Source: Deltaproteobacteria bacterium
Lineage (GTDB): Bacteria; Myxococcota_A; Polyangia; Polyangiales; Houyiibacteriaceae
Direction: 5' to 3'
Length of the DNA: 39,907 bases
Assembly (NCBI GenBank): GCA_013151775.1
Contig: JAADHO010000072.1
Location: 1 to 39,907, forward strand
Shown: piece by piece, positions 4,536 through 38,900 of the stretch
Layout: each line of letters starts with the position of its first letter
Position numbering within the stretch: position 1 is the first letter of the stretch
The notes under the pieces: generated by a model
The model's database searches: none
What the model was told of the DNA's origin: nothing
What the model saw: the letters and a program-made list of their open reading frames with translations, nothing else
Position numbers and translations under genes: made by a program

Positions 4536-4539
4536 GGAT

Positions 4540-4556
4540 CAGCGCCAGGAGCGCTG
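4540..4556 (+). terminator. hairpin after khpB, possible weak terminator
   Basis: CAGCGC and GCGCTG form a perfect 6-bp stem around the loop CAGGA, four bases after the khpB stop. No T-run follows, so intrinsic termination would be weak at best. Confidence 0.3.
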
Positions 4557-4611
4557 GCCGGGCGGAGCGTGCGCCTTCCTGTCGGGCTTGCTCGATGCCT
4601 GATCGCGAGCG

Positions 4612-4935: not shown

Positions 4936-4944
4936 CGCTCCAAC

Positions 4945-5211
4945 TCAGCGGGACGTCGCGCGGCGCGCCCGGCGAAGCTGCGCGAGCGTCTTCGATCTTC
5001 CCTGGTCGATCGCGCGATCCCCATCGAGGCACATCTTCAAGAGCGCGAAGGCTCGCCGCTGCTCTTCATAGCTCTCCACGTCTTGCAGCACAGCCGCCGC
5101 TTTGCCGTTCTGGGTGATGTAGATCGGGGCGCGGCTCTCACGAACACGCTGCACCAGCTCGGCCGCACGCTTCAGGCTGGAGATGGGTTCGATATGCGAC
5201 ATGGTGGACAT
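4945..5211 (-). CDS. Phd/YefM-family antitoxin
   Basis: The roughly 88-residue protein shows the Phd/YefM pattern: HIEPISSLKRAAELVQRVRESRAPIYITQNGKAAAVLQDVESYEE, followed by a helical C-terminus that would wrap the toxin. The N-terminal part of this family binds DNA and autoregulates the operon. ATG 5211 is used. ATG 5202 gives the more canonical start M-S-H-I-E-P, and a frame to 5262 is also open. A TATTAT hexamer (complement of 5210-5215) with TTGCGT upstream (complement of 5235-5240) may be the promoter. The 9-bp odd palindrome CATAATATG (5209-5217) may be an operator. Confidence 0.87.
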   Translation of the reverse strand: MSTMSHIEPISSLKRAAELVQRVRESRAPIYITQNGKAAAVLQDVESYEEQRRAFALLKMCLDGDRAIDQGRSKTLAQLRRARRATSR

Positions 5212-5386
5212 AATATGGACCCACATTTGGCCATACGCAAGGTGCGTCTCCGGCTTGGCCACGAGCGAACGAGCGGTTCATCACAGCCTGTCGCTCGCGT
5301 CCTCGGACAGCTCGCGCCAGCGCCCGTGGGGGCCTTGCGCGAGGTCGATTCGTGACCCCACAGGTGTGCGGATCCGCCCGATCTGT

Positions 5387-18715: not shown

Positions 18716-21037
18716 CTACGCCGGCTCGAGGTAGGTCGCGAGCAGCACCTTCTCGCCGCGACCTGGGAAGCGCACACGCACCTTGGGAGGTGAGCCAGGC
18801 TCCACGCCGCGCACCTGACCCACGCCGAACTTCTTGTGGCGCACCTGCATGCCCGGCTGTGGTCCGGCCTCGGGATCGCAGCCGTCGCTCGCGTCGAGCC
18901 AGACCTCGTCGTGCGCAGACCCCGGAGGCGGTCCCGGCGCGACCTGCGCCTCAGCCTGCACGCTCGCGTGGGAGTCGGCTCCGAAGGGATCGTATGCGGC
19001 CTCACGCCGTGTCACCCCGCGAGCGCTCGACGCGCGCGGCCGCCAGCCGATGAAGGTGACGTCCTCCGCCGGTAGCTCGCTCAGGAATCGCGAAGGCTGA
19101 CAGCGGCGATAGCGTCCAAAGAGCCGGCGCTCGCGGGCGTGGCTCATCAGCAGGCGACGGCGCGCACGCGTGAAGGCGACATAGGCGAGGCGGCGCTCCT
19201 CTTCGATGTCATCGGGATCCGTGAACCCGGGGCGCGACATGGGGAAGAGCTCCTCCTCGAGCCCCGTGACGAGCACGGTGTCGAACTCCAGGCCCTTGGC
19301 CGCGTGGATGGTCATCAGGGTCACGCGCTCGCCCTCGGGGGCCTCGTCCGCCTGCGTCTCGAGGCTGACTCGCTCGAGATAGGAGGAGAGGGAGGCGTCC
19401 GCCAAGAGCGGCGCGAGGGGCTCCTCGCCGGGCTGCTCCTGATGCTGCTCCGCCTCGTCGTCGGGCTGGGCCGCCCGCGCAGCCTGCTCGAAGCTCTGCA
19501 TCGAGCCCACGAGCTCCCACAGATTCTCGAGCCGCGCCTCCGCCTCCGGGCTGTCCTGCTGCTCGAGGCTCAGCCCGTAGCCGCTGCCCTTCAGCGCGGC
19601 CTCGCCGAGCTCACCGAGGCCCACGCCCTCGTCCTTCAAACGGGTCAGATCATCGAGCAGCTTCCCGAAGGCACGCAAGCGCTCGCGCGCCTTGCCCTTC
19701 ACGCCTTCCTCGGGTCCTGCCAGACCGAGCGCCTCACGCACGGAGATGCCGCGACGCCCGGCGGCCTCGAGCAGGCGCCCCTCGGTGGTCTTGCCGATGC
19801 CGCGAGCGGGCACGTTGAGCACACGCAGCAGGCTGATGTCGTCGTCCGGGTTGTCGATCACGCGCAGATAGGCGAGCAGGTCCTTCACCTCGGCGCGGTC
19901 ATAGAAGCGCTGACCGCCCACGATGCGGTAGCCCACGCCAGCGCCACGTAGCGCCTCCTCGAAGACGCGTGATTGGGCGTGCGTGCGATAGAAGGTGACG
20001 ATCTCGTCCAGCGCGAGGCCATCCTGCTGCGACTGCTCCACCAGCTCGAGCAACACGCGCGCCTCGTCCCACTCGTCGCGCACTTGCACCACGACGGGCG
20101 GCGCCCCCTCCTCGTTCTCGGTCCAGAGCTGCTTCGGCTCGCGATCGACGTTGTTGTGGATCACCGCGTAGGCCGCCTGCAGGATGCGCTGCGTCGAGCG
20201 GTAGTTCTGCTCGAGCTTCACGACCTTTGCGTCTTCGAAGTCGCGCTGAAAATCCAAGATGTTTCGTCGTTCAGCACCACGCCATCGGTAGATGCTCTGG
20301 TCGTCGTCACCGACCACGCAGAGATTCCGGTGGACGCTCGCCAGAGCGCGCACGAGGCGCAGCTGCGCGTGGTTGGTGTCTTGAAATTCGTCCACCAACA
20401 GATGCTCGAAGCGTCCGGCGAGCTCGAGGCGGAAGGCCTCGTCCTTCTCCAGCGCCAAGACCAGACGGTAGATCAGATCGCCGAAGTCCAGGGCTCCGGC
20501 GCGCTTCATCGCCTTGTCGTACTCCTCGAAGATCCGCACCTGCGTGGCCTCTCGATAGCCGCTCGACGAGAGATCCTCGGGCCGTCGCATGCGCTGCTTC
20601 GCTTCGCCGATGAAGTGCGCCACCTCCTTCGGCCGGTGCTGCTTCTCGTCGAGGCGCAGGTCGCGCAGCACCCGCTTGATCATCGCACGCTGATCTTGAT
20701 CGTCGTAGATCGTGAAGCTCGAGGAGACGCCCGCGCGCTCGGCGTTCATGCGCAGAAGTCGCGCGCAGACAGCGTGAAACGTGCCGATCCAGGCGCGCTC
20801 TCCGACCCCGGGCGCCAAACGTGCCAGGCGCTCGCGCATCTCGCCGGCGGCCTTGTTGGTGAAGGTCACGGCCAGGATGCGCCACGGCGGCACGTGGCGG
20901 CGAGTGGCGAGGTCTGCCACGCGATGGGTGATCACGCGGGTCTTGCCGCTGCCCGCGCCAGCAAAGACCACGAGCGGGCCGCCCTCGTGGAGCACGGCCT
21001 CGCGCTGCGGTGGGTTCAGGTCGGAAGCGAACGACAC
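18716..21037 (-). CDS. pcrA: UvrD/PcrA-type superfamily 1A DNA helicase
   Basis: The 773-residue protein has all SF1A motifs in order: LNPPQREAV (Q motif), Walker A AGAGSGKT, VTFTNKAA, GTFHAVCARLLR, DEFQDTN, GDDDQSIYRWRGA, QNYRST, VTLMTIHAAKGLEFDTV and AYVAFTRAR. The C-terminal PGMQVRHKKFGVGQV module is the Tudor-like end that in PcrA/UvrD binds RNA polymerase. It unwinds DNA in repair and clears replication conflicts. The start is GTG at 21037. PcrA and UvrD cannot be separated by eye. Confidence 0.95.
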   Translation of the reverse strand: MSFASDLNPPQREAVLHEGGPLVVFAGAGSGKTRVITHRVADLATRRHVPPWRILAVTFTNKAAGEMRERLARLAPGVGERAWIGTFHAVCARLLRMNAERAGVSSSFTIYDDQDQRAMIKRVLRDLRLDEKQHRPKEVAHFIGEAKQRMRRPEDLSSSGYREATQVRIFEEYDKAMKRAGALDFGDLIYRLVLALEKDEAFRLELAGRFEHLLVDEFQDTNHAQLRLVRALASVHRNLCVVGDDDQSIYRWRGAERRNILDFQRDFEDAKVVKLEQNYRSTQRILQAAYAVIHNNVDREPKQLWTENEEGAPPVVVQVRDEWDEARVLLELVEQSQQDGLALDEIVTFYRTHAQSRVFEEALRGAGVGYRIVGGQRFYDRAEVKDLLAYLRVIDNPDDDISLLRVLNVPARGIGKTTEGRLLEAAGRRGISVREALGLAGPEEGVKGKARERLRAFGKLLDDLTRLKDEGVGLGELGEAALKGSGYGLSLEQQDSPEAEARLENLWELVGSMQSFEQAARAAQPDDEAEQHQEQPGEEPLAPLLADASLSSYLERVSLETQADEAPEGERVTLMTIHAAKGLEFDTVLVTGLEEELFPMSRPGFTDPDDIEEERRLAYVAFTRARRRLLMSHARERRLFGRYRRCQPSRFLSELPAEDVTFIGWRPRASSARGVTRREAAYDPFGADSHASVQAEAQVAPGPPPGSAHDEVWLDASDGCDPEAGPQPGMQVRHKKFGVGQVRGVEPGSPPKVRVRFPGRGEKVLLATYLEPA

Positions 21038-21201: not shown

Positions 21202-24200
21202 TCAGTAGCACTGCCAGAAGGCGGTGTCGTCGTAGACGTACATCACGCCGGAGTCGCCGAGGTTGATGTCGACGAAACTCTCGTCGAACTGCATCATGAA
21301 GCGCCCGCTGCCCTCGTCTCCCTGAACCCACTGCTGCCGAGCACACGCGCGCTCTGGGTGAAGAGCTGACCGTGGAGGTCGCCCTCGCCGGACCAGACGT
21401 CCACAGGCACGCGCAGACTCACGACCTCGAAGCCACGCGCGTGTCGCAGCTCCACTTCATCGGGCGGCTCGAGCGTCTGCCCGGCCTGCTCGGCGGTGGA
21501 GAACACGATGGCGGTCTGCCCCGAGTAGGGCTCGAAGGCCTCGTTCATGTCCGGGTTGGCACAGAAGACGCTGATCACTCGTTGCTTCGGGTAGCGACTC
21601 GCGAGCTCGGGCATGCTCGTGAGGTCGAGGCTGAAGAGGTGCACCATCGGCTCGTCGTCGAAGCTCGGCCAGCGCTCGTCGCCGACACCCGGCGGCTTGC
21701 CCCCGCGCAGGTTGAACGTGCCCGCATCCGACGTCTCCTTGGGGCGCAGGAGGTAGATGATCTCTGCGGTGCCTCCCTTCTGCAGCGCCTTGTCCGCGAG
21801 CAGGGCGGCCTTCTCGATGGCGTCGAGTTCCTTCGGCGCCTCGACCCCCTGCTGCTGAATTTCCTCGAGGAGCTTGGTGTAGTCCTGATGCCCGAGCGCC
21901 TGCTCGAAGACGCTCTTCAATCCCTGCACTCCGTTGCGTAGCAGCCACGCGGTCCACACGCGCTTGTCCGTGAGGCCCTGCAGACCCGCGCGAAGTTCGT
22001 TCTGCTCTTCCTGCTTCAGTGGTGGCTCGAGATCGAGCAAACCCGCGAAGGCGTGCTGCAGCACGGGCGCGCTGGGGTGACTCCCGATGAAGCGGAAGGC
22101 GCGACAGAAGCGAACTTTCTTCTGTGTGTCGAGGTTGGCCAGCAGCACCTTCTCCGCTCGCTCCGCCGGCAACCTGTGCACGATCTTCTGGAGCATGGGC
22201 ATGATGTTTCGATACTCGTACGACTTCCGCACCGCGTTCGTGCGGATCAAGACGTCGAATTTCGCGTCCCAGGCCTCACCGCGATCCGCCATGCGCGCCA
22301 GCATCAACAGGATGGCGTGGTGAAGCATCTCCTTCTCGTCCTTCTTCTTCTGCCCGGCGTGACGGGAGACGAGCAGGGGCAGGGCTCGGGCCGGGAGCAT
22401 GCCGAGGCTGAACGCCACAGAGGCCGCGGAGCCGCTAGGGTCTTCGATCACATCGAGGGCCTTCGGCCAGATCTCGGCGTCATCGAGGAAGGGCAGGACG
22501 CTCGCGACGTAGTGCCTGGCGTATTCGTCCTCGAGCTGTTGCTGATAGACCCTCTGACGGTCGCTCTCATCCAAACACGCGAGGGCCTCGAAGAGCCCGT
22601 TGCTGCTGGGAAACCAAGGCACGTCGCCGCGCGTGAAGTCGACGGCGGCGTCGATGAAGGCCGGATCCATTCGTGAGGCTTCGGGCATGGCGCGGAGCTC
22701 CTGATCGACCCAGTCCGGAGACGGGCTCCCAGGGTTGAGGTCCATGGCCTCGAGCAGGGCCGGCGGCATGTCCTTGCCCTCGGAGGCGAGTTTCTGCACG
22801 GCGAGGTTCGCCACGATCTTTCCGCGCCCCTTGTCACAAGCTGCGGCGAGCTTGGCCAGCGCCTCTCCGTCGTCGGCGCGCCACTCGCGGAAGGCGGTCA
22901 CGACGCGACCCTCGTAGCCGGAGAAGTTCAAGAGCTCGACCAGCTGCGCCTCGGTCATCAGAGGCAGCGCGTCCTTGGTCTGGTCCCAGGGAACCGTGGA
23001 CTCGCGCTCGGCCTTGGTGAGGACACGCTCTAGCAGCGCCTGCGCCCATTCTTCACGTGTGCCGAAGAGCTCGACCAGCTGATAGAAGTGCGCGTTGGGC
23101 TCACGGCGGTGACCCTCTTCGGGCAGCGTGTCGTAGAGCTGCACTTCTTCGAGCTCACCGTCGACCCACCACAGGATGCGATCCTCCATCCCGTAGTCGT
23201 CCACGTGCTTGCTCGTGAGCTCGTCGAGCTGACCATCGAGGGCCTCGCCCACGTCCACACCGGCCCGGGCCAGCACGAAGGCCACGCCGCGGCGCATGTC
23301 GGTGGGCAGATCTCCAAAGCGCGCCTCGAAGGGCGCGGGCTCGAGGTCGTAGACGTGGGCCACGAGCGTGTCGAGGTCCCGGGGCCAACCGGGGAGATGC
23401 CCGCAGTAGACAGTCTCGCTCACGGCGGTGACCTTCGAGAGCAGCCCGAGCAGCTCGTCAGCCTTCACCAGCGCGTGGTGCTCCGCCAGCACCTGCCACA
23501 GGGACTGCTCCTGCTCCAACGCGAGCAGGCCACTTCGCCACAGGCGCATCAAGAGCGGTCCCACCTCGGGGTAGCCGCAGGCGGCGTTCAGGGCGTCACG
23601 CTTGGCGTATTCGTCGCGCTTCTTGACGACTTTCGCCGCGATCTTCGCCAGCTTCTTCTCGTCCTTGGCGAGCTTCTCCGACAGACCGTCGACGTAGACC
23701 TCGACGGTCTCCTTGCCCTGCTCGTCCCAAGTGGTCTTCGGGCCCGCGATGACGCCACGCTCGTAGCGAACCTTCAGCTTGGGCGCACCGCCCGGATAGT
23801 ACTCTTCCCAGTCTCCGACCATCACGCCCCTGCGCCAGAAGCGCCGGTAGGCGAGCTGTCCCCCCGGGTACCAGGCAGCCTCCTCCTGATCGCGCGCGCC
23901 GCGCCAGTAGCCCGAGACCACGCGCTCATGTGCAGGCCCGCCGTACCAGGTCCAGAGGCCGTGACGCTGACCATGCCAGAACTCGCCACGCGCCTCGGGG
24001 GAGCCGTCTTCCGCGTCGTTCGAGAAGGGGCCATGTGCCTTGCCCTCGTCGTCGTACGAGAGGGTCTGCTTGTGAGCGCCGCTCGGGTAGCGCCGAATCC
24101 AGTCGCCACGCCGCTCACCGCGCTCCCAACGCCCGCAGCAGATCTCCTGACCACTCGGGGTGAAGTCGTGCTGTTCGCCGTGGTCGAGTCCGTCGACGTA

Positions 24201-24407
24201 GTCGGTGATCCAGTGGGGCTGGCCGTCGGCGAAGAAGCCCTCCCAACGTCCGTGCCAGCGTCCCGCCTTCAGCGTGCCTCGCTTCTTCACGACCTCCGTG
24301 CCGGGCCACCGCTCGCGAAACTCGCCGTCTCTGGGCCTAGGGAGGATTGACGGAAACGGCGTGCTGAGTTTACCCGTCATCTCGACCTTCATGCCCTGAA
24401 TGCTCAT
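21202..24407 (-). CDS. large MORN-repeat (YwqK-like) protein with C-terminal DUF1963, frameshifted near the end
   Basis: Residues about 42-240 are Trp/Gly-rich MORN-type repeats such as GRWHGRWEGFFADGQ and VGDWEEYYPGGAPK. A long helical middle of about 650 residues is unrecognised. The C-terminus resembles DUF1963/YwqG (MVHLFSLDL, RVISVFCANPDMNEAF). The open frame ends at 21294, but the family ending W-V-Q-G-D-E-G-S-G-R-F...G-D-S-G-V-M-Y-V-Y...F-W-Q-C-Y continues in the next frame to a stop at 21202. One base is missing near 21330. ATG 24407 has AGGGAG six bases upstream; GTG 24410 is next to it. No signal peptide is seen. The repaired length is 1068 residues. Confidence 0.72.
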
Positions 24408-24563: not shown

Positions 24564-25286
24564 ATGTCAGCGCCCATCACACTCTACCAATTCGAACTCT
24601 GCCCCTTCTGCCACAAGGTGAAGGCTGCCCTCGAGCTCGAAGGCATCCCCTTCGTGAAGGTCGAGGTGAACCCCATGACCAAGAAAGAGCTGCCCGAGCT
24701 CGAGGGCAACGAGAAGCGCAAGGTGCCCGTGATCGACGTGGACGGCCGGCTGATCGCGGACTCCTCGGCGATCCTCGCGTTTCTCGAGAACGAGTACCAG
24801 GCGCCCTACTCCCTGAGCTCTCGAGGCGACGAGCCGAATGACACGTCCAAGAGCCAGCAGGTCGAGGCCTGGGTCGACGAGGACCTCGCGCAGGTGCTGC
24901 CCGCGGTGATCTACGGCAAGTGGCGCGACGCTCTGCGCGCGGCAAAGGTGGTCGCCAAGAGTTCGAACTTTGGCGTGGTGCAGAACGCCGTGGTGCGAGG
25001 TGGCGGCTCGCTGATCATGCATCAGGTGGCCAAGAAGATCGTCGCACGACGCGGCGGTGAGAACCCCCAGCAGATGCTCGACGACGAGATGGACAAGTTC
25101 GAGCAGTGGCTCGGCGACGACGACTTCATCGGCGGATCCGAGCTGTGCATCGGCGACGCCGCGGCCCACGGCTGCCTCACCTGTATCCAAGATTTCCCCG
25201 CCTTCGAAGAGATCATGCGGCGCCCAAAGGTCCAGGCCTGGTACCAGCGGGTGCAGGCGCTGCGCAGCCAGCGACGCGCCGCCTAG
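24564..25286 (+). CDS. glutaredoxin/GST-like protein (prostaglandin E synthase 2-like)
   Basis: The 240-residue protein has an N-terminal glutaredoxin-like domain with L-C13-P-F-C16-H-K-V-K-A-A-L and the cis-proline segment K-V-P-V-I-D-V-D-G. D-S-S-A-I-L follows, then an all-helical GST C-terminal domain. The text CPFC.KVKA.L...IPF..VEVNPM is close to the mPGES-2 type of GST proteins. It has no signal and should act in the cytosol on glutathione or protein thiols. Its substrate is unknown. The preceding region carries the CCCTATAGGG palindrome. Confidence 0.82.
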   Translation: MSAPITLYQFELCPFCHKVKAALELEGIPFVKVEVNPMTKKELPELEGNEKRKVPVIDVDGRLIADSSAILAFLENEYQAPYSLSSRGDEPNDTSKSQQVEAWVDEDLAQVLPAVIYGKWRDALRAAKVVAKSSNFGVVQNAVVRGGGSLIMHQVAKKIVARRGGENPQQMLDDEMDKFEQWLGDDDFIGGSELCIGDAAAHGCLTCIQDFPAFEEIMRRPKVQAWYQRVQALRSQRRAA

Positions 25287-27048: not shown

Positions 27049-28497
27049 ATGGATCCCCTCGAGGCGGCGCGCGAGATTCTCCCGGCCTGGGTGATCTGGG
27101 GTCCGCTCTACAGCTACCTACCCTTGATCTTCGTGTGGGCGCTGGTGTTCACGGCGGCGGGCGCTGCCCTGGGCGGCTTGCCTCCGGCGCGCACGCAAGA
27201 GGAGGCGCCCAACTCCTGGGTCGAGCGGGCGCGGCGAGCCTACCCGGCGCGCCTCGGAACGGCGCTCCTGGCGACGTTTCTGCCTCTCTTTGCAGCCATG
27301 ATCGCCTGGCTCTTCGCGGGCTACCTCTTGCCCATCGGGAGCGCGGGTCTCGCCACCCTCGCCTTCGTCAGCGCCTGGCTCGGCTGCGCCGTGGTGCGCT
27401 ATCGCGTGGAGCGCCGCATCCTGGGCGCGCTCACAGCGCGGCTCTTCGTCTCGGGGACGCTCGTGCGCTGGCTCTTCTTCTTGTGGCCGCTGCTGCTGAT
27501 CCTCTTCGCGAACCTCGCCGCAGACGACCGCTTCGGCGCGCGCAGCGCCCTGGTCCTCGGCGTCACGGGCGTGTGCTTCGCGGCGCTCAGCTTCGGCGCG
27601 AACATCTCCATCGGCCGCTGGGTCGGCTTGGTGGAGCACGCCGACGCGAGGGTGGTGGCGATCGTCGATCGCGTGGCCGCCTCCGTTGGACGCGCTCCGA
27701 GCGGCGTGTGGGTCGCCAAGACGGGGCTGGCCAACGCCTGGATCCTGATCATTGGCCGCGAGCTGCTGTGGACGTCGCGCGCCCTCGAGGTCCTCGACGA
27801 CGACGAACTGGCCGCCATCACGGCGCACGAGCTCGGTCACCTCTCCGAGTCGAGGCGCGTCCGCTCGCTGCGGATCCTCCGGCTGATGCTCTTCCTCCCT
27901 CTGTGCGCGGCGAGACCCATCGCGGGAGAATTCGGCATCGGCACCGTCGCGCTGTTGATCGCTGGGTTTCTCTTCAGCATGGTCGCCCTGGGCCGGACCA
28001 CGCGCCGCATGGAGAGCCGCGCCGACCACGTGGCACACGCACATCAAGGAGACGCGGGCACCTACGCCCGCGCCCTCGAGCGCCTCTATCGAGCGAATCA
28101 ATCGCCCGCCGTGACGCGCGGCAGAGGCGGCGTCCACGGGCACCTCTACGACAGGCTCACAGCGGCGGGCACGACTCCCGGCTACCCTCGCCCTGCGCCG
28201 CCCCCTCGTTGGCGCTCCAGCGCTGCGTCCGTGCTCCCGCTCGGCGTCGGTGTGTTCGCCCTGCTGATCGCGCGCATCCTGATCGTCGTGTGGGTCTCCC
28301 TGGCTAGCAGCCAAGGCGCGACGCTCGTCGGAGCTGCCTTCGGAGGGCTCGACCATCAGATGCTCGAGACGCTCGCGGAGCAGGCGGACTCGCGCGGGGA
28401 GCTGCACGACGCGGACGTGTTCTTCGCCGCCGCAGACTTCGTGCTGCCGACACAGCCCGAGCCGACGCCGCCGGATCCTTTCGACCGATCAGAATAG
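27049..28497 (+). CDS. M48-family membrane metallopeptidase
   Basis: The 482-residue protein is a multi-pass membrane protein. It has the zinc motif H260-E-L-G-H264 and a third ligand in E322-S-R-A-D, followed by a helical pair near the C-terminus (VLPLGVGVFALLIARILIVVW read in two pieces). This matches Ste24/HtpX-type M48 peptidases, which cut membrane proteins or prenylated peptides. The start is ATG 27049; a frame open from 27004 adds a hydrophilic leader. The 3' end overlaps the convergent Omp85 gene by nine bases. Confidence 0.85.
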   Translation: MDPLEAAREILPAWVIWGPLYSYLPLIFVWALVFTAAGAALGGLPPARTQEEAPNSWVERARRAYPARLGTALLATFLPLFAAMIAWLFAGYLLPIGSAGLATLAFVSAWLGCAVVRYRVERRILGALTARLFVSGTLVRWLFFLWPLLLILFANLAADDRFGARSALVLGVTGVCFAALSFGANISIGRWVGLVEHADARVVAIVDRVAASVGRAPSGVWVAKTGLANAWILIIGRELLWTSRALEVLDDDELAAITAHELGHLSESRRVRSLRILRLMLFLPLCAARPIAGEFGIGTVALLIAGFLFSMVALGRTTRRMESRADHVAHAHQGDAGTYARALERLYRANQSPAVTRGRGGVHGHLYDRLTAAGTTPGYPRPAPPPRWRSSAASVLPLGVGVFALLIARILIVVWVSLASSQGATLVGAAFGGLDHQMLETLAEQADSRGELHDADVFFAAADFVLPTQPEPTPPDPFDRSE

Positions 28498-31400
28498 ACC
28501 GATGCTGAAGTGGAAGGCGCCGAAGCCCTCGTTGATGGCCCGGCGCCGCAGGAGCACGAAGCCGTAGTCGAAGGCCAGAGGTCCGATGGGCGTGGCGATG
28601 CGTAGGCCGATGCCCGCCGTGGGCCGCAGGGCGAAGGGATCGAAGTTTCCGGCGTCGGCCCACAGGTTGCCCAGATCGGCGAACACCCCTCCGGCGATGT
28701 CCCCGTAGATGGGAAAGCGCAGCTCGCCGCGCAGCAAGAAGAAGGCGTCTCCGCCACGCACCACGTCGGTCACCGTCAGGTCGCGGCTGCGTTCGATCTG
28801 GTCGGCCAGATCCTGCGGCACCATGGCGTCCTCGAGGTAGCCACGCATGGTGTCGACGCCGCCCATGAAGAAGAGGCGGTTGGGGTAGGTCTCGGAATTC
28901 GCCGACAGGTGCACGATGCGCCCGAAGCGAAGCTGCGCGGCGAACACGACGTCGTGACTCAAGGGCGCATAGGCGCGCACGCCGGCGGTGACCTTGATGT
29001 GATGGCTGAAGAATTCCTCGCGCACACCGGCTACGTTTACGCCTTGGGTGCGCAGTGTTCGCGCCCACTCACCGCCCAGATCCAGGAGCACGCCGCGATG
29101 GGGCGTAAACGGGTTGTCCCTCAGATCGAGGTGGACACCACCCGCCAAGGTGACGAGGCTGGTGCGGCCCTCGGGCACCAACAAGAGCTTCCGGAGGCGG
29201 GTGTCGGTGGTGGTCCGCAGGAGCTGCGAGAGGCTCTCGCTGACCTCGGGGAAGAGCCCGATGTCGTTGCTCTCGACACCGCCGGAGAGGGTGCTCGAGA
29301 GCTGGCGCATGGGCGTGTAGATGAACGCGAGCTCGACGCTGTTCTTGGTGTAGCCAAAGTCCCGTTCATTGTCGCGCAGGTGAGCCGCGGTCAGGCTCGA
29401 GCGCACGTCGGACAGACCCACGAAGGGGAACGACAGGCTCAAGGAGACCTGCCGCTCGAGCTGGTCCGAGACTGACAGATCTTGGAGGCGGCGCTGCAAG
29501 GTCGAGTCTTGAAACACGAAGAACTGATACGCGAACTGCACGCGCAGATCGAAGCCGACCGCGTAGCCGAAGAGGTTGCGGTAGCCGTACTCGAAACCCG
29601 AGCGCACGCCCTCACCCGTGGAGAGGCCGAGATGAAAATCCAGGAACTGGGTCTTGCGTTCGGTCACCCGGATCAAAACGGACTTCACGCGCGCGGCGAG
29701 CCCCGGATCTTCCGGACCCACGTTGACGCCGGTGAAGATGCCCAACGCCAAGAGCGCGTCTTCCGTCTCTCGCGCGAGCGACGGACGATAGACGTCCCCC
29801 GGATGCAGGGCCATCAGGCTGCGGATCAATGCCTCCGACGTGCGCTCGGCGCCTTCGATGCGCATCTCTCCGGCGTGCACCACGAAGCGCTCGACCACGC
29901 GCAACATCACGTCCACGCGAGTGCGATCTCCGCTGAAGCGAACCTCTGGCTCCACCTGTACGAAGAGGTAGCCCGCCTCTTGGTAGAGGTCGATGACGCG
30001 AGAGCGTGCCTGCTCCAAGGCGAGGTGACTGAAGGGCATGTCGCGGCGCAGACCCGCGGCCTCGAGCAGCTCGCGAGAGCCGATGGCTTGATTCCCGCGA
30101 ATGTCCACTGCGTGAAGCATGGAGCGCGGACCTTCGACGATCGGGACGACGGCGATGGCGCGTCCGGGAGCGAGCACGTCGAGGCGCGCCGGTCCGACCA
30201 CGGCGCTGAGGTAGCCCTCGGCGCGATACAGCTCCTGAAGATGGGTCGTCGCGCGCTCGTAGGTCGGCTCGTAGAAGACCTCGTGGGGATCGACACGGAA
30301 GGGCGGCGGCGTCTCGCGCACACGCGGCGTCGTGCTCTCGACCAAGAGCCGCGCCGTCTCCGCGTCGACGGGCTCGGTGATGCGCGTCGAGGCGAGATCC
30401 TCGTCGAGGTAGCTCTGCACCTGCTCACGCAGCGTGGCGGAGTCGAAGTGCCGCGCGCCAGGGAAGGAGGTGCCGATGACCCGCAGTCGCCTGCCGGGCG
30501 AGACGTGCACGAGCAGGAAGGCCTGCCCGTGTCGGCGCCCGCGCACGCGCCGAACTTGGGCCTGAGCGTCGTGAAAGCCGACCTTGGCGTAGGTCTGACG
30601 CACGCGCTCCTGCATGCCCTCGAGCACGCCCGGGGCGGTCACGCGATCCTCTCCGGAGCGCAGAGCATCGATCACGTCGTCGCGCTCCAGAGGCGCCTCG
30701 CCACGCACCCGGACCTCGTAGCGCGGGCCCACGCGCGTCGTCAGCGTCAAGGTGGCCAGAGCGCCGGCCCGCTCGACTCGGGCCAGAGTCACCTCCGCCT
30801 CGAGCCAGCCGCGTTTCCACAGGCGCGTCTGAAGCTTGCGCACATCCCCCGCGAGGCGTCGACGATCGAGCGCGTCTCCGGGATCGAGGTAGAGCCCTCG
30901 CATCAGACCACGTGAGGCGGGGAGCGCCTCGCCCTCGATGTGCAGGGCGGCGATGTGGGTGCGAGGCCCGGGCTCGAGCTGAACGACCAACACCTTCTGG
31001 GTCGGGTCGTCCGTGTCCCTCAGGATGACCTCGACCCGAGCGTCGTCGTAGCCTCGCTCCACCAGGGCGCGCTGCGTCGCGTCGCGTCCGCGCACCAACT
31101 TGGCGCGATCGAGCAGCTCTCCAGCGCGCACGCCGATGATGCTGGCGAGCTCCTGCTGTTCGAGGGCGCGACCCGGGCGCAGATCCACCCGCGAGAGCAC
31201 GATGCGCGGCTCGACCAAGACCACCAGACGCACACCTCCCCGCACGGGCACGAGGTCGAAGGCGACGTCGGCGTAGCGACCTGTGGCCAGCAGCCGCAAG
31301 GTGGCCTGACGCAAGAGCCCGCGGCTCAAGCGAGCGCCCACGGGGATGCCCACCGCGCGCTCGGTCGTCTGGTCGGCGTGCGTGGCCACACCACGACCCT

Positions 31401-31578
31401 CCACGCGGACATCGAGCACGCGCGCGCCCCTGAGCTCAGGGGGGATGTCGGCCCGAGCCGCCGGCGACCACGACGCCACGAGCACGCACGAGGCGAGGGC
31501 CAGCCGCAGGCCTCGCAAGACGAGGCGCGGCGTAGCCCAGGGGCGGCGATGCGGACGCGATTGGGTGAGAGCGATCAC
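28489..31578 (-). CDS. Omp85-family outer-membrane assembly protein (BamA/TamA-like) with about seven POTRA domains
   Basis: A signal segment (VLRGLRLALASCVLVASWSPAARA, read in two parts) precedes about seven POTRA-like units of 75-110 residues. Each ends with a V-x-x-G/P-R linker, for example LVVLVEPR, VVQLEPGPR, TTRVGPR, LVHVSPGR, PIVEGPR and RVVERF. A 16-strand-type barrel follows from about residue 650. It includes F-M-G-G-V-D-T-M-R-G-Y, equivalent to the conserved (V/I)RGF loop-6 motif, and ends with phenylalanine (S-I-G-L-F) as barrel proteins do. GTG 31578 overlaps the tamB-like stop (GTGA); GTG 31596 is the alternative. It probably works with the TamB-like protein in the envelope. Confidence 0.88.
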   Translation of the reverse strand: MIALTQSRPHRRPWATPRLVLRGLRLALASCVLVASWSPAARADIPPELRGARVLDVRVEGRGVATHADQTTERAVGIPVGARLSRGLLRQATLRLLATGRYADVAFDLVPVRGGVRLVVLVEPRIVLSRVDLRPGRALEQQELASIIGVRAGELLDRAKLVRGRDATQRALVERGYDDARVEVILRDTDDPTQKVLVVQLEPGPRTHIAALHIEGEALPASRGLMRGLYLDPGDALDRRRLAGDVRKLQTRLWKRGWLEAEVTLARVERAGALATLTLTTRVGPRYEVRVRGEAPLERDDVIDALRSGEDRVTAPGVLEGMQERVRQTYAKVGFHDAQAQVRRVRGRRHGQAFLLVHVSPGRRLRVIGTSFPGARHFDSATLREQVQSYLDEDLASTRITEPVDAETARLLVESTTPRVRETPPPFRVDPHEVFYEPTYERATTHLQELYRAEGYLSAVVGPARLDVLAPGRAIAVVPIVEGPRSMLHAVDIRGNQAIGSRELLEAAGLRRDMPFSHLALEQARSRVIDLYQEAGYLFVQVEPEVRFSGDRTRVDVMLRVVERFVVHAGEMRIEGAERTSEALIRSLMALHPGDVYRPSLARETEDALLALGIFTGVNVGPEDPGLAARVKSVLIRVTERKTQFLDFHLGLSTGEGVRSGFEYGYRNLFGYAVGFDLRVQFAYQFFVFQDSTLQRRLQDLSVSDQLERQVSLSLSFPFVGLSDVRSSLTAAHLRDNERDFGYTKNSVELAFIYTPMRQLSSTLSGGVESNDIGLFPEVSESLSQLLRTTTDTRLRKLLLVPEGRTSLVTLAGGVHLDLRDNPFTPHRGVLLDLGGEWARTLRTQGVNVAGVREEFFSHHIKVTAGVRAYAPLSHDVVFAAQLRFGRIVHLSANSETYPNRLFFMGGVDTMRGYLEDAMVPQDLADQIERSRDLTVTDVVRGGDAFFLLRGELRFPIYGDIAGGVFADLGNLWADAGNFDPFALRPTAGIGLRIATPIGPLAFDYGFVLLRRRAINEGFGAFHFSIGLF

Positions 31579-34500
31579 TCGAATTCGAGGCGCCACCGCA
31601 GATCCACACCCAGGTTTCCGAAGGTCGTGCCCTGGCGGTTGACGCTGTCATATACCGCCTCGACGCTGGTCTGGTCACCCACACGCCACTCGGCGGACGC
31701 GCGCACGTCGCGCTCGTTGCCGGTGAGCGCCGTGGCCGCCGTGAGTCGAACCCGGTCGGAGATGCGCTTGCCGATGCTGACGAAGGGCTCCGGCCGGCCC
31801 GTGCGCTGAGAGTAGAATGTGGTGATACCGAACTCGTCGATCACGCCCACCGCGCGCGTCACCTCGTCGTTCACCCCCGTGACGTTGCTCAGGGCCTCCA
31901 GACCCGCGGCGCCAATGTTTCCAGCCTGAAGCTGCTCCGCCTCGCTGCGGGTCATGCCCAAGGTGAGAAGCAAGATGATGTCCTCCTGACCCATCTGGGG
32001 GTCGCTCGAGAGATCGAGGCGAAAGCCGTCGAGGTTACCATGGGCGCGCAGCTGAATGCGGTAGTTGGGAGCGCTCGGATCCGTGGCGCGGTGCACTTCG
32101 GTGGTGGCCGTGACGTCGAACTGCGGATCGATGCGCGTCGGATCGTCGAAGTCGATGTCCGCCCGCTGGATCGACAGCTCCGTGCCACGCAGGCGCACCT
32201 GACCACGCGGCACGCCGAGGGCGCCCACCACGCCGAAGCGTTGGTCCGTGCCCACGATACGAAAAGGAATGTCGGAGTCCTGAATCACCACGTCCGCGTC
32301 GAAGACGTTGTTCTCGATGCGGATCGGCGCACGCGTGGTGAGCCTGAGATCGAGGGAGAGCTTGTCCGCGTCGGGATCGTAGCGGTCGACCTCGAGGCGC
32401 GACGCATGGTTCAGCTCTCCGATGGTGGGAGAGAGGGAGACCGGCTTGGTGTAGCGCACCCGGTCTAGGTGAATGTTTCCGTCCAGCAGCGGCAGGCGCT
32501 GACCCCGATGCCAGGTGAGCCGGGTGTCCCCACCGAAGGCGAGCTCGAGCCCAGGCTCGGGGCTGAGCGAGAGCCCCGAGAGGCCCACGTTGAAGGCATA
32601 GCGGTCGATGCCCCCCGCGCGCAGGCTCGCGGAGCCTCCCAAGGACAGGCTCCCGCCCGCGAAGCGCGCCTCGAAGTCCTCGAAGAGGATGCGGTGGGCG
32701 CTGAAGGTCACCTGACCGTCGAGCTCTCGGATCGGCGCCGGGAAGTCCGCGAAATGAAAGCTCGCGTCCTCCACCCTCGCCTCACCGAAGACGGCAGGAT
32801 CGTCGAAGGCCCCCGTGATGTTCACCTGCATCCCCACGGCGCCCGAGGCGCGCGTGAGGCGCGGTGAGAGCGTGGCCAAGAGTGCGAGGTCCAGCGCGCC
32901 ATCCACACGCAAGGCGAGGCCCCCGCGCATCAGACCCGTGCCCGAGACGTCCAGAGTCGAGCCCGAACCGCTCAAGCGCGCACGCTCCACGGAAAAGCCC
33001 CGTCGTCCGTTCAAGGCGACGACCACGTCTCCGACGTTCTGCACCGAGACGGCGCCGGCCGAGACCGCGAGGCGCGGCAGGCGCAGCTCTCCGACCAGAG
33101 AGTCATCCTGAAACATGGCGCCGCCGGTCAGCAGCAGATCTCCGCTGATCTCTCCTCTCAAGGTCTCGTCCGAGGCCTGAGCTTGGAGCAAGCTGTCGAG
33201 CTTCAAGCCTGCGAAGCGCACCAGGCCTCGCAGGGGGATCACGGAGGTGCGACCAAAGGCCATGTCCACGACGATCTGACCGTTCGCCCCCTCGCCACAC
33301 ACGATGTAGGCACTCTGCTTGGGCGAACGAGGGACGGGACCTCGGGAAGTCCTGTAGGGCGGATCGGGCCGGAAGCGTGCGCGCGCGAAGCCGGCGCGGG
33401 CGTGGGCGCAGGGCTCGTCCGGGGGCGGCGCCGCGGGATCCCAACCACGAGCGGCGCGCACCCAGGGGTCGTCCTCGTCCGTCAACCGGATATAAGTGCG
33501 GCCATCGCCTATCAAGGTGCCGGCCCAGGTCAGCCCTGTGATGGTGACGTCCATGTCCGCACGCGGAGAGTCGGGCGTCCCGCGCACCTCCACCGCGGCC
33601 CCGATGGTCCCGTCGAGGGCCGGCATGTTGTCGCGGAGACCTTCGACGTCGTGCAGGCGCATCTGGTCGATGACGGCCGAGAGGCGCAACTCCCCGTCGA
33701 GTCCCATCTCACCCGATAGGGTGACGACCCCGTCGCTCTTGTGCAGATGCGCGTGGTCGATGGTCAGCACACCGCCCTCGTAGCCACGCTGCCAATCGAC
33801 CCAACGCCAACGACCCACGAAGGCGCCGTCGGTGTAGTGATAGCCGTCGATGTCGGCCTCGCTGACGTCCATGTCGATGTCAGCGAGCATGGTCCCGTGG
33901 GGTCCGTCTCCGGGATAGTCGTTGGTGAAGCGGATGCCCACGCGCCCGGAGCCGATCGCTTGATAAGACTCGAAGCGCTCATCTCCGTCGAAGTGAAAGA
34001 TACGATAGAGGTCCGCCAAGCTGACGCGAGTGGCCACCATGGTCGTGGTCGCGGCGAAGCGGTGGTCGCGAAAGTCGAGCAAGAGGTCGTCCATGCGGTA
34101 GTGGCTCTGGCCCTTGACCGCGACGATCGACGGAAAGCGCGCCATGAAGCCGCCTCCCTCCAGGCGAAAGTCGCTCTCCACGTCGCCCAGCGGGAAACCG
34201 CCAAAGACAAAGCCGGCCAGGCGGGTGTGTCCCTGCACCTGTGGATCGCCGTAGGGACCTTCGATGTCGATGCTCAGCTCACCACGCCCGGCGAGCTGAA
34301 ACGCCAGCAGAGGCGTGACGTCCTCGAGGTCGAGCTGTGTGAGGCGCGCCGCGATCTCGATGTGGTCCGAGAAGCCGAGCAGCACGTGCCCGGAGATGTG
34401 ACTCCGCGGGGTGTCGCCCTCGAGGTGCTCGAAGCGCAGACCGTCCGGACGGATCGAGATGCCGCCCTCCAGACGCGCGCGACTCACCTTCAAGACGTGG

Positions 34501-35870
34501 CGCTGAGGGCGCACGTGCCAGGCGTCTTGAGTGATGCGGAGGTTGCGCGTGTCCATGGCGATGGGTCCGCTGATGTTCAACGGATTCAGCGTGCCCGACA
34601 GGGCGATGGGCCCCGAGAGATCCCACTGCACGATGGCGTCCGGCGTAACGCCGAGCTGCGCCATCAGCTTCGCGAACTCGAGATGCTCGATACCGATCTG
34701 TGCGTGCACCGCCATGCTGCCGTCGAAGGAGACACCTCCTTCGATGTGCACGACGCCGCCGTCGCGGATCAGGTGCACGTCGCCCGCGGGGACGCGCACG
34801 CCGTGGGGATCGAAGTCCACCGCCAGCTCCACGCGATCGCCCAGCCCATAGGTGTCGATGTGCGCGTTGGTCAGCCGCAGGTCGCCCTGACCAATGGGTC
34901 CATCCGTCGTCCCGTTCACGTCTGCGCGTAGCTCGAGCAGACCGTCGATGGGCGGCAGGTCGACGCCCAGCGGTAGGTGCCGAAGGTGTCCGAGGTCCAC
35001 CCGAGTCGTGACCTCGCCCGCCCAGGTCGAGTCGAAGGGCAGCGGGAGATGAAAGTTGCTGACGCCCACGCGCAGGTGCCCCGTGCGCAAGACGAAGCGG
35101 CGCAGCTCGATCTCCTCGTCGGGATCGACCTCACCGTCGATCAGAAGGCGCTGCAGATGCTCCGTGCCCAGAGCGTGGACGATCTCGCCGCCGCTCGCGT
35201 CCGCACGCAGTGACACCCTGCGCCCGGCCTCCACGCTGAGGCTCAGATCGAGATCCTCGATGCGCGCGTCGGCGAAGGGCTGCGCGTCGATGATCACGGT
35301 GGCGGAGGTGGCCTCGATGCGAGAGAAGGGCAGGTGCGTCTCGCCCTCGGGCGTGCTGCGCGTGCGAGGCAGGTTGCGCACCTCTCCGTCGCGTACGACC
35401 AAGTGGATGGTCGGGTGATCGATGCGGATCGTCTCTAGATCGAGCTCCCCGGCGAGGAAGGCCTCGAGGGACGGCTCGATGGTCAGCTCCTGCGCCTCGA
35501 CGAAGTGACCGTAGACCGGATCATCGAGGGCGATGTCGGTGGCGTGCACGGCGACGCCAGGCGGAAAATACGAGAGGTCCACGCGCACCTCGCCGAGCGT
35601 GGCCTGAAGCCCGAGCTCGCGCTGGATCACGCTCACCGCCAGGCGACGCATGCGCTCGCGCCCCCAATCCGTCTGCGTCACCCACACGCTCAACCCGACG
35701 CCGGCCAAGAGCGTCAGGGCGACTCCGCGCACAACCCAGCGCGCACGCCTGTCATGGCGCAATCCAGGCTTTTTTTGTGCCTTTTTTGTCTCTTCCAACG
35801 CGATCTCGGAACGGCTCTTGATCTTAGCACGAGAGCCCGAATCGGCCCCGATTCCGGGCCGTGTTTCCAT
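31575..35870 (-). CDS. TamB-like inner-membrane/periplasmic protein (DUF490, AsmA-like)
   Basis: The roughly 1431-residue protein has a basic N-terminus, one transmembrane helix (VVRGVALTLLAGVGLSVWV), and a very long beta-rich periplasmic part. The C-terminal DUF490/TamB domain reads L-S-S-D-P-x-M-G-Q-E-D-I-I-L-L-L-T-L-G, then F-Y-S-Q-R-T-G-R-P-E-P-F-V-S and L-R-W-R-L-E-F-E. TamB-like proteins bridge the two membranes in lipid transport and assembly with an Omp85 partner, encoded directly downstream with a GTGA overlap. A Pro/Arg-rich insertion with two cysteines lies at about 33290-33420. ATG 35870 is the best start; the frame stays open upstream to 36584 only as antisense of the next gene. 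Confidence 0.88.
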   Translation of the reverse strand: METRPGIGADSGSRAKIKSRSEIALEETKKAQKKPGLRHDRRARWVVRGVALTLLAGVGLSVWVTQTDWGRERMRRLAVSVIQRELGLQATLGEVRVDLSYFPPGVAVHATDIALDDPVYGHFVEAQELTIEPSLEAFLAGELDLETIRIDHPTIHLVVRDGEVRNLPRTRSTPEGETHLPFSRIEATSATVIIDAQPFADARIEDLDLSLSVEAGRRVSLRADASGGEIVHALGTEHLQRLLIDGEVDPDEEIELRRFVLRTGHLRVGVSNFHLPLPFDSTWAGEVTTRVDLGHLRHLPLGVDLPPIDGLLELRADVNGTTDGPIGQGDLRLTNAHIDTYGLGDRVELAVDFDPHGVRVPAGDVHLIRDGGVVHIEGGVSFDGSMAVHAQIGIEHLEFAKLMAQLGVTPDAIVQWDLSGPIALSGTLNPLNISGPIAMDTRNLRITQDAWHVRPQRHVLKVSRARLEGGISIRPDGLRFEHLEGDTPRSHISGHVLLGFSDHIEIAARLTQLDLEDVTPLLAFQLAGRGELSIDIEGPYGDPQVQGHTRLAGFVFGGFPLGDVESDFRLEGGGFMARFPSIVAVKGQSHYRMDDLLLDFRDHRFAATTTMVATRVSLADLYRIFHFDGDERFESYQAIGSGRVGIRFTNDYPGDGPHGTMLADIDMDVSEADIDGYHYTDGAFVGRWRWVDWQRGYEGGVLTIDHAHLHKSDGVVTLSGEMGLDGELRLSAVIDQMRLHDVEGLRDNMPALDGTIGAAVEVRGTPDSPRADMDVTITGLTWAGTLIGDGRTYIRLTDEDDPWVRAARGWDPAAPPPDEPCAHARAGFARARFRPDPPYRTSRGPVPRSPKQSAYIVCGEGANGQIVVDMAFGRTSVIPLRGLVRFAGLKLDSLLQAQASDETLRGEISGDLLLTGGAMFQDDSLVGELRLPRLAVSAGAVSVQNVGDVVVALNGRRGFSVERARLSGSGSTLDVSGTGLMRGGLALRVDGALDLALLATLSPRLTRASGAVGMQVNITGAFDDPAVFGEARVEDASFHFADFPAPIRELDGQVTFSAHRILFEDFEARFAGGSLSLGGSASLRAGGIDRYAFNVGLSGLSLSPEPGLELAFGGDTRLTWHRGQRLPLLDGNIHLDRVRYTKPVSLSPTIGELNHASRLEVDRYDPDADKLSLDLRLTTRAPIRIENNVFDADVVIQDSDIPFRIVGTDQRFGVVGALGVPRGQVRLRGTELSIQRADIDFDDPTRIDPQFDVTATTEVHRATDPSAPNYRIQLRAHGNLDGFRLDLSSDPQMGQEDIILLLTLGMTRSEAEQLQAGNIGAAGLEALSNVTGVNDEVTRAVGVIDEFGITTFYSQRTGRPEPFVSIGKRISDRVRLTAATALTGNERDVRASAEWRVGDQTSVEAVYDSVNRQGTTFGNLGVDLRWRLEFE

Positions 35871-35993
35871 GCCGTAGACGCAGGGAGGGCGGACTGATTC
35901 GCTCGCCGGGCCCGCGGCGTTGAATCGAAGGCGCCTCGGGAAGGTCTCAGGCGCGGCTTGCGTAACCAGGCCATGACCCCGAGGATCCTGCCC

Positions 35994-38900
35994 ATGCTCC
36001 ACGTCCGCGCTTCGCTCTTGGCCCTCGTCACCCTCGCGTTGCTCGCCCTCGCGCCGACCTCGGCCGACGCGCAAACGACGATTCCGGGCGGCAACATCAT
36101 CAACCAGACCTGGACCACCGCGGGCAGCCCCTACCTGGTGCAAGGTGACATCACGGTGCCGGCGGGCGCCTTCCTGACGATCGAAGCGGGCGTCGAGGTG
36201 CGCGCCTCGAGCAGCGACGCGGTCAGCTCCGGCACGAACACGAGCCGGGTGGAGATCATCATCAACGGCCGGTTCACGGTGAACGGTACGGCGGCGAGCC
36301 CGGCGCTCTTCACCTCCGTCACCACCACGACGGGCAGCTGGTACGGCATCATCGCGGACTCGGCGGAGGCCATCAGTATCACGGGCGCTCGCATCTCCCG
36401 CGCGAGCTACGGCGTCTACGTGAAGAGCGGCAGCCCCGCCCTGGTGGGGACGACCCTGCAGCAGAACAACTACGGCCTGTACGCGACGGGAAGCAGCGCC
36501 CCGAATGTCACGGGCTGCGTGCTCACCTCCAACACCTCGGCGGGCCTCTACGTGGGGGGGACGGCCACGCCCAGCGTCGACCACTCGACGATCTACGGCA
36601 ACTTCGACGGCGTCTTCACGCTCTCTGGGACGACGGCGCTGACGGCCGTCGTGATCACCAACAACACGGACGACGGCATCGACCGCAACGGCGGCGCGGT
36701 CAACCTCGACTACGCCAACGTCTGGGGCAACGGCACGAACTACGAGGGCACCACCAACCGGGGCGCGGGCGTCCTCTCCGCCAACCCGCTCTACGTCTCG
36801 AGCAGCGACCTGAGGCTCACGGAGAACTCGCCTTCACGCTTCGGCGCCGGAGACATGACCGACCAGGGCGCGCTGCCCTACGTCAGCGATCCCACGCCGG
36901 GGCTCTACGGCACGCTCTGGAGCGACCGCGTCGTGAGCGCCGGTGAGGTCGCGGTGGCCGGCGACCTCACGGTGGCGGCGGGCGTGACGCTGACACTGCA
37001 CGCGGGCGTGACCCTGCGCTTCGCTACCTCCGACCTGATGCGCGCCTACAAGGACTCGAGCCGCGGAGAGCTGCGGGTGTTCGGGACGCTCGTGACCGAA
37101 GGCAGCGTGGCGAGCCCGGTGATCCTGACCTCGGCGACCACCACCGTCGGCTCGTGGTGGGGCGCGCAATTCTACCCCGGCTCCACGGCCAACGTCGTGC
37201 GCGGCCTGGAGGTGAGCCGCGCGCGCTACGGGCTCTACAACGAGGCGGCGGATCCCGGGACCTTCGGGCTGCTGACGTTGAAGCAGAACACGTACGGCGT
37301 CTTCGCCTCCTCAGGCAGCCTGGGGCTGAGCGAGTGTCAGCTCCTGAACAACGGCTCGGCCGGCAGCTACGTGCTCAACACGGCCTCCCTGAACCTCGAC
37401 CACTGCACCGTCTACGGGAACTTCGACGGCATCTACAGCATCGGCGGCACGACCACGCTCACGGCCGTGGTGATCACCAACAGCGCGGACGACGGCATCG
37501 ATCGCAACAGCGGCGCGGTCAACATCGACCACAGCAACGTCTGGGGCAACGGCACGAATTACGAGGGCACCAGCAACAGGGGCGCCGGCATGCTCGCCGC
37601 CAACCCGCTCTACGTCAGCGCCTCCAACCTGCGGCTCACGGACAACTCCCCTTCGCGCTTCGGGGCGATCGACTCGAGCGATCAGGGCGCCCTGCCCTAC
37701 GTCAGCGATCCCACGCCGGGACTCTACGGCACGCTCTGGAGTGACCTCGTCGTGGGCGCGGGCAGCACCAACGTCGCCGGAGATCTCACGGTGGCGCCGG
37801 GCGTGACGCTCACCCTGCAGGCGGGCACCACTCTGCGCTTCCTGTCCACGGACATCATGGGCGCCTACGAGGACTCGACTCGCTCCGAGCTGCGCGTCTT
37901 CGGCTCCTTGATCACGCAGGGCACGGCGGCCGCGCTCGTGACCTTGACGTCGGCCACCACCACCGTGGGCTCGTGGCGAGGGCTTCACCTCTACGCGGGC
38001 TCCACGGGCAACGCGCTCGAAGGGCTGCTGGTGAACCGCGCCCGCTACGGCCTCTACAACCAGGCGGCCGCGCCGGGCGTCGTCAACCGCGTGACCTTCA
38101 GCTCGAACACCTATGGCGTGTGGCTGGGAGCGGGCAGCAGCCTGCAGATCGACAACGGGCTGCTGAAGTCGAACAGCTACGCGGGCGCATACGTCACCGG
38201 GGGCGCAACCCTCGACCTGACGAGCAGCACGCTCTACGCCAACTTCGACGGGCTCTTCGTGCAGTCGAGCGGCAGCCGTGTGAACGTGCTGAATTGCATC
38301 ATCACCGACAGCGCGGACGACGGCATCGATCGCAACGGCGGCAGCGTGAACATCTCGTACTCGGACGTGTGGGGCAACGGCACGAACTACGAGGGCACGA
38401 CCATCAGGGGCGCGGGCATGCTCGCCATCAACCCGCTCTACGCGGGCGCCCCCGGGGACCTGCGCCTGACCTCGACCTCGAGCTGCGTGGACGCCGGTGG
38501 CGCCGCGGGAGCGCCGACGGAAGACCTCGACGGCACGACACGTCCGCTCGACGGCAACGGCATCGGCGGCGCGCAGCAGGACATGGGCGCGTATGAATTC
38601 GCCCTCGCCACCGTGTGCGGCGACGGCATCCTCGGCGCAGGCGAGAGCTGCGACGACGGCGCGCTCAACGGCGGCTATGGGCAATGCAACGCGAGCTGCA
38701 CGGGCTTCGGTCCGCGCTGCGGAGACGGCGCGACGGACAGCCCGCCGGAGCAATGCGACGACGCCAACGGCGACAACACGGACGCCTGCCTCTCGACCTG
38801 CGTGAACGCGACGTGCGGAGACGGCTTCATTCAAGCGGGCGTAGAGCTCTGCGACGACGCGAACATGGACAACACGGACGCCTGCGCGGCCTGCGCGCCC

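What the first reader, a model, noticed from the sequence alone, without database searches (positions are those of the whole stretch)
21202..24407. Fusion of YwqK-like MORN repeats and a YwqG-like DUF1963 domain around an unknown 650-residue helical middle
In Bacillus subtilis ywqG and ywqK lie in the neighbourhood of an LXG toxin operon, where YwqK acts as antitoxin. Here both domain types appear in one protein, separated by a long unrecognised region. No toxin gene is adjacent. It may be an orphan immunity or scaffold protein, or an unrelated use of the same folds.
Basis: partly seen in the sequence, partly recalled or inferred. Interest (0 to 1): 0.5.

Follow-up and report, generated by a model that had tools for sequence, protein, structure and literature searches.

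The report
MORN–solenoid–YwqG scaffold protein in myxobacteria
A large myxobacterial protein joins a repeat sheet, a helical spring and a chaperone-like domain; its relatives carry DNA-break-sensing modules known from human PARP1, so it looks more like a DNA-linked adaptor than a toxin antidote, and this copy's ends look damaged.

Summary
The fusion is real. The gene lies on the minus strand (24407 to 21202). Domains: MORN_2-like beta repeats, a ~600-residue HEAT/ARM-like helical solenoid, and a C-terminal DUF1963 (YwqG, "TYPP") domain. The window protein misses Pfam's cut-offs for both named domains. A homologue in another myxococcotan family passes both. A homologue model matches MORN1 (Z 14.4) and B. 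subtilis YwqG 1PV5 (Z 11.9). In the window the last ~43 codons of the DUF1963 domain, with its conserved glutamines, lie in another frame after a frame change near 21331-21340.

The toxin-antidote reading gets no support: no LXG domain in 28 genomes searched and no conserved neighbour. Instead, close relatives begin with BRCT domains; the window protein keeps only what looks like the first BRCT strand. More distant relatives with the same solenoid-TYPP core carry zf-PARP or WGR. BRCT, zf-PARP and WGR are PARP1's DNA-sensing modules, yet no PARP catalytic domain was seen in these proteins.

Best reading (function inferred): an adaptor whose N-terminus docks on DNA or a partner, whose repeats form a scaffold and whose TYPP domain holds a client protein chaperone-fashion. 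YwqG fusions to BRCT, WGR and ankyrin were published in 2014; MORN, the solenoid core and zf-PARP appear to be additions.

The parts
21202..24407 (-). whole gene, ATG at 24407, TGA at 21204-21202 reached only in a second frame
   Evidence: codon-position G+C 0.69/0.43/0.85 over the long frame
24366..24407 (-). probable remnant of the first strand of a BRCT domain (first 14 residues); the rest of the BRCT is absent
   Evidence: likeness to BRCT strand 1 of L004/L046 seen; score 41, reached by 0 of 5000 shuffles (weaker against three other BRCTs: 0.0002, 0.0126 and 0.0214 of shuffles); no BRCT in the upstream frames
23700..24329 (-). MORN_2-like beta-repeat sheet, about residues 27-236
   Evidence: searches (below cut-off; homologues above cut-off), model and MORN1 match
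21849..23693 (-). HEAT/ARM-like alpha-solenoid, about residues 239-853
   Evidence: AlphaFold2 model of window 21846-23690, pLDDT 88.7, pTM 0.81; generic solenoid matches, best Z 9.9
21202..21848 (-). DUF1963/YwqG-like (TYPP) domain, split over two frames
21331..21340 (-). approximate place of the frame change inside the TYPP domain
   Evidence: compared with homologues the net length change looks like 4 bases missing (by eye)
18716..21037 (-). next gene downstream, same strand: UvrD/PcrA-type helicase; adjacency not conserved in relatives
24564..25286 (+). divergent upstream gene: glutathione S-transferase/glutaredoxin-like

Best explanation
It is a cytosolic scaffold/adaptor protein. Shown here: its anatomy (MORN sheet, alpha-solenoid, TYPP/DUF1963 domain), its place in a myxococcotan family with interchangeable N-terminal modules, and that close relatives begin with BRCT domains. 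Inferred: in the intact family members the N-terminal module (BRCT here; zf-PARP or WGR elsewhere) docks the protein on damaged or broken DNA or on a repair partner; the MORN sheet and solenoid form an extended binding surface; and the TYPP domain holds an unstructured stretch of a client protein, chaperone-fashion, as its eukaryotic relatives Tsr4/PDCD2 hold ribosomal protein uS5. The window's copy has lost almost all of its BRCT and has a frame change in the TYPP domain, so it is either a DNA-uncoupled variant with an assembly error at its end, or a gene that has begun to decay.
For: Domain folds. N-terminal modules over Pfam cut-off in 12 of 42 family proteins scanned: BRCT in L046, L047, L172; zf-PARP in L060, L069; WGR in L050, L051, L053, L068, L070, L186, L189; two more below cut-off, BRCT in L048 and zf-PARP in L072. 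The window protein lies in one clade with the four BRCT proteins and one other, support 100/99. Chaperone-like role of TYPP: proposed in PMC4275035 (passages read); Tsr4/PDCD2 as uS5 chaperones and TYPP residues needed for uS5 binding: PMC10216425 (passages read). PARP1 holds zinc fingers, BRCT and WGR: PMC4245714 (passages read).
Against: 30 of 42 scanned members show none of the three modules above cut-off, so DNA docking is not a general feature. The window's own copy has no Pfam-detectable BRCT. Two MORN-bearing relatives lack the TYPP domain (L048, L049). No conserved DNA-repair neighbour was seen; the UvrD neighbour is particular to the window. No client is known, and there are no expression data. 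That the protein is cytosolic is assumed, not tested.
Confidence: 0.42

Rival explanations
1. Orphan immunity protein: the YwqK-like MORN part and the YwqG-like part neutralise polymorphic toxins, as YwqK is paired with the LXG toxin YwqJ in B. subtilis.
For: TYPP sits in multi-domain proteins in several bacteria.
Against: LXG 0 of 28 genomes with the control ringing; no widely conserved adjacent gene among 53 loci; N-terminal partners are BRCT, zf-PARP, WGR and ankyrin; 1000+ residues is far larger than usual immunity proteins (recalled). Only the LXG class was searched for; other toxin classes were not.
Confidence: 0.08
2. Generic protein-protein interaction scaffold unrelated to DNA: the BRCT, zf-PARP and WGR modules are just further binding modules, and the N-terminal module is freely replaceable.
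For: Ankyrin-bearing members, 30 of 42 members without BRCT, zf-PARP or WGR over cut-off, and the 2014 paper's own preference for a general interaction role.
Against: Three of the modules are exactly those of PARP1, and zf-PARP is a DNA-break-binding finger (established knowledge); zf-PARP is uncommon in the class, 22 of 144 genomes.
Confidence: 0.35
3. The window's copy is a decaying pseudogene of such a scaffold (compatible with either functional reading).
For: BRCT almost wholly missing and a frame change inside the TYPP domain that leaves its conserved glutamines out of frame; the only other genome of the genus searched has no homologue (that genome is 81% complete).
Against: A 1037-codon open frame with strong codon-position bias and a still conserved stretch after the frame change (E 6.7e-19) speak for recent constraint; an indel in a 460-contig assembly may be an error.
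Confidence: 0.3

Closest known systems
YwqG / DUF1963 / TYPP superfamily (TSR4, PDCD2, PDCD2L)
   Same: C-terminal domain: fold of 1PV5 (Z 11.9), GGxP-like motif, conserved glutamines
   Different: fused behind a MORN sheet and a solenoid; sequence too divergent for Pfam's DUF1963 cut-off in all scanned members but L174
YwqG-family fusions with BRCT, WGR or ankyrin (Burroughs & Aravind 2014, PMC4275035)
   Same: same class of N-terminal partners
   Different: that main text has 0 hits for 'morn' and for words beginning 'parp'; a helical N-terminal domain is described there for another TYPP family (family two)
PARP1
   Same: BRCT, zf-PARP and WGR modules occur in this family
   Different: each scanned member carries one kind of them, not the set; no PARP catalytic domain detected; the window's genome has no PF00644 hit
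YwqK (MORN_2 protein, putative LXG antitoxin; MORN_2 content recalled)
   Same: MORN_2-type repeats
   Different: no LXG domain in the genome searched, and a long multi-domain protein

Membership tests
TYPP/DUF1963 superfamily | fold of B. subtilis YwqG (1PV5) | tested here: met
   homologue model residues 873-1077 against 1pv5: Z 11.9, rmsd 3.9, 194 aligned
TYPP/DUF1963 superfamily | profile similarity to Pfam-positive DUF1963 domains | tested here: met
   hhalign probability 98.1 over 162 columns; homologue L174 24.1 bits, cut-off 23; window protein itself has no Pfam hit
TYPP/DUF1963 superfamily | GGxP motif (as given in PMC4275035) | tested here: met
   GGKP in the window's long frame; consensus GGxPxGV in the 29-row alignment, with one G invariant
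TYPP/DUF1963 superfamily | conserved glutamine of the second repeat (PMC4275035) | tested here: inconclusive
   two glutamines nearly invariant in homologues and encoded in the window, but after the frame change
MORN_2 repeat proteins | array of MORN-type beta hairpins | tested here: met
   homologue model with 18 strands at residues 16-225, matching MORN1 Z 14.4
MORN_2 repeat proteins | score above Pfam's curated cut-off | tested here: inconclusive
   window 24.6 bits against 29.6; homologues L003/L047, L005/L048, L049, L172, L174, L185 pass
BRCT proteins | BRCT domain | tested here: not met
   no Pfam hit in the window protein, only a 14-residue likeness; met in L046, L047, L172
LXG toxin-antitoxin systems | LXG toxin gene nearby or in the genome | tested here: not met
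   0 of 28 genomes, control rings in B. subtilis
PARP enzymes | PARP catalytic domain | tested here: not met
   no PF00644 listed for any of the 42 family proteins scanned nor in the window's genome
HEAT/ARM solenoids | repeat fold of antiparallel helix pairs in a superhelix | tested here: inconclusive
   confident, nearly all-helical model; best matches are importin-, PP2A- and SF3b-type solenoids at Z 8-10, within the range of common arrangement

The most novel reading that the evidence does not exclude
Myxococcota use a family of PARP-free DNA-break receptors: PARP1's three DNA-sensing modules (zf-PARP, BRCT, WGR) are exchanged over one solenoid-TYPP core, so that break detection is wired to client-protein holding instead of ADP-ribosylation.
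Probability: 0.22. Interest if true: 0.65.

Novelty: new variant of a known kind. Interest (0 to 1): 0.4.

Why it matters
The bacterial branch of the TYPP superfamily has no demonstrated function in the papers seen here, while its eukaryotic branch is needed for making the small ribosomal subunit. A bacterial family that repeatedly couples this domain to DNA-break modules gives a concrete, testable lead. It also corrects the toxin-immunity reading that B. subtilis gene names suggest.

Tried and rejected
Immunity or toxin link: LXG search negative; neighbours not conserved. Anti-phage defence: PADLOC models hit mainly the BRCT or WGR parts of homologues and nothing in the window protein. Direct PDB sequence search with the C-terminal profile found nothing at E <= 1, and with the whole profile only the uncharacterised protein 2ra8 (a WGR protein, recalled) plus three chance-level rows. 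MORN_2 search of the own genome and of 37 relatives was uninformative, since the 22-position model rings almost nowhere. First scan of named genomes with the window protein found no relative; with the alignment it found 7 loci, 3 of them the full homologues already known. zf-PARP proteins in the class at large: of 30 loci scanned around zf-PARP hits one (L119, the same gene as L072) carries the solenoid; 14 longer stretches fetched around such hits gave none, so zf-PARP mostly sits in other proteins there. PARP catalytic domain: 4 of 37 relatives; of the four genomes with near full-length homologues only G006 has it. YwqG's fold did not come up among the 50 listed Foldseek rows of the whole model, only in the realignment.

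Tree limits: 39 rows, kept if their match covered profile positions from at most 150 to at least 500 and one per locus; shorter and TYPP-only members were dropped; root by midpoint; WGR needs 4 label changes and is not clearly clustered (65 of 500 shuffles as low).

Literature: searches. No paper in the library held 'MORN repeat' with BRCT and bacterial, nor MORN_2 with DUF1963. Only this open-access library was searched.

Full report
What is there. The gene lies on the minus strand of the window, ATG at 24407. Its long frame ends at 21294 after 1037 residues. The second stretch matches the family profile by itself at 21205-21330 with E 6.7e-19, so it is a real continuation and not chance. The change of frame lies near 21331-21340; compared by eye with homologues about four bases are missing. 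Whether this is an assembly error or a real mutation cannot be told here.

Domains. Pfam alone is weak on the window protein: MORN_2 below its cut-off and no DUF1963. Homologues settle the matter. L174, from another myxococcotan family, passes the cut-offs for MORN_2 (48.3 bits) and DUF1963 (24.1 bits; cut-off 23) in one protein. A profile of 29 C-terminal domains aligns with 15 Pfam-positive DUF1963 domains at probability 98.1. A model of homologue L046 (residues 207-1283, pLDDT 87.6, pTM 0.73) shows a MORN sheet, a helical region and a C-terminal beta domain; against solved structures the first matches MORN1 (Z 14.4) and the last matches B. subtilis YwqG 1PV5 (Z 11.9, rmsd 3.9, 194 residues). 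The window's own middle was modelled alone (pLDDT 88.7): a nearly all-helical solenoid resembling importin-beta, PP2A-A and SF3b at Z 8-10, a level at which only the general arrangement is shown.

The family. Of 57 relatives, 7 including the own genome have any match, and three besides it (G006, G008, G015) have near full-length ones of about 40% identity. In 289 genomes of the class the near full-length matches were again only these four genomes, all of the window's family; the three named records are Deltaproteobacteria, Myxococcota and Sandaracinus sp. MAGs. A profile of solenoid plus TYPP finds 21 of 235 genomes across the phylum, among them L172 (BRCT, MORN, solenoid, TYPP) and L174 (MORN, solenoid, TYPP) from two other families. 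The fusion is thus found in three families of the phylum and is not an assembly accident. The own genome has a second, shorter solenoid-TYPP protein without a MORN hit (contig C339).

N-terminal modules. L046 has two BRCT domains and L047 one, over cut-off; L048 has one below it (where they are named L004, L003 and L005). The window protein begins with a stretch like the first BRCT strand (score 41 against the first BRCT of L046, 0 of 5000 shuffles as high; against three other BRCTs 0.0002, 0.0126 and 0.0214 of shuffles) and then jumps straight to the linker before the MORN repeats. No BRCT lies upstream in any frame. In a tree it falls with the four BRCT proteins and one other, support 100/99, so loss of a BRCT is likelier than never having had one, though it sits at the base of that group. 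Elsewhere in the family zf-PARP (L060, L069; L072 below cut-off) or WGR (L050, L051, L053, L068, L070, L186, L189) takes that place, and ankyrin repeats in others. In all, 12 of 42 proteins scanned carry BRCT, zf-PARP or WGR over cut-off and 30 do not. The 42 are 32 of the 33 proteins found by profile in the window and the loci (L062 was left out) plus 10 from the loci, where 22 frames matched. BRCT, zinc fingers and WGR are the DNA-sensing parts of PARP1 (PMC4245714, passages read). No PARP catalytic domain was listed for these proteins or found in the window's genome.

Mechanism. The TYPP domain was defined by Burroughs and Aravind in 2014 (PMC4275035, passages read). They proposed a chaperone-like protein-binding role and already listed BRCT, WGR and ankyrin fusions of the YwqG family. 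Tsr4 and PDCD2 are now described as dedicated chaperones of ribosomal protein uS5, and residues conserved in TYPP are needed for that (PMC10216425, passages read). From this I infer an adaptor: N-terminal module for docking, repeats as scaffold, TYPP as client holder. A WGR protein (DR2173) is strongly upregulated when the damage-response repressor DdrO is depleted in Deinococcus radiodurans (PMC8533742, one passage), which is a loose parallel and not a test.

Against the immunity reading. LXG is absent from 28 genomes with the control ringing; the four closest loci share kinases and one other weak pair but no adjacent gene; over 53 loci with 393 neighbour frames, the widest recurring group was a kinase in 6 loci, the next came from closely similar loci of one group (L054, L057, L062, L063, L073), and the rest were groups of 2 or 3 loci that I did not identify (the kinase identity is). 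Only LXG was tested, so other toxin classes remain open.

Limits. The window's copy is damaged at both ends on paper, so any function should be tested on L046 or L047. The DNA link rests on domain identity alone, and most family members show no such domain.

Noticed in passing
window 4612-5262, minus strand: A ParE-type toxin gene (54 bits) with a small upstream frame that could be its antitoxin; an ordinary type II pair 16 kb from the finding.
   Followed up: partly
window 28489-36584, minus strand: Omp85/POTRA protein and TamB protein side by side, a TAM-like outer-membrane assembly pair.
   Followed up: partly
window 372-1079: RadC-like gene; with UvrD at 18716-21037 the contig holds two genes usually annotated as DNA repair.
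   Followed up: no
L060 (G048 C104), L069 (G190 C695), L072 (G075 C65): Bacterial proteins with PARP-type zinc fingers in front of a solenoid and a YwqG-like domain; zf-PARP was found in 22 of 144 class genomes, mostly in other proteins.
   Followed up: partly
L189 (G364), 2319-4805: WGR-solenoid protein whose end weakly matches DUF4241 (E 0.003, below cut-off) in place of TYPP, suggesting that the C-terminal module may be exchanged too.
   Followed up: no
L048 (G006 C134), around 7192: Member of the BRCT-MORN group that stops just before the TYPP domain, with no TYPP remnant seen in the three downstream frames.
   Followed up: partly
window 38924-39901: Minus-strand frame made of a repeated serine/threonine-rich motif at the contig end, probably a tandem repeat.
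   Followed up: no
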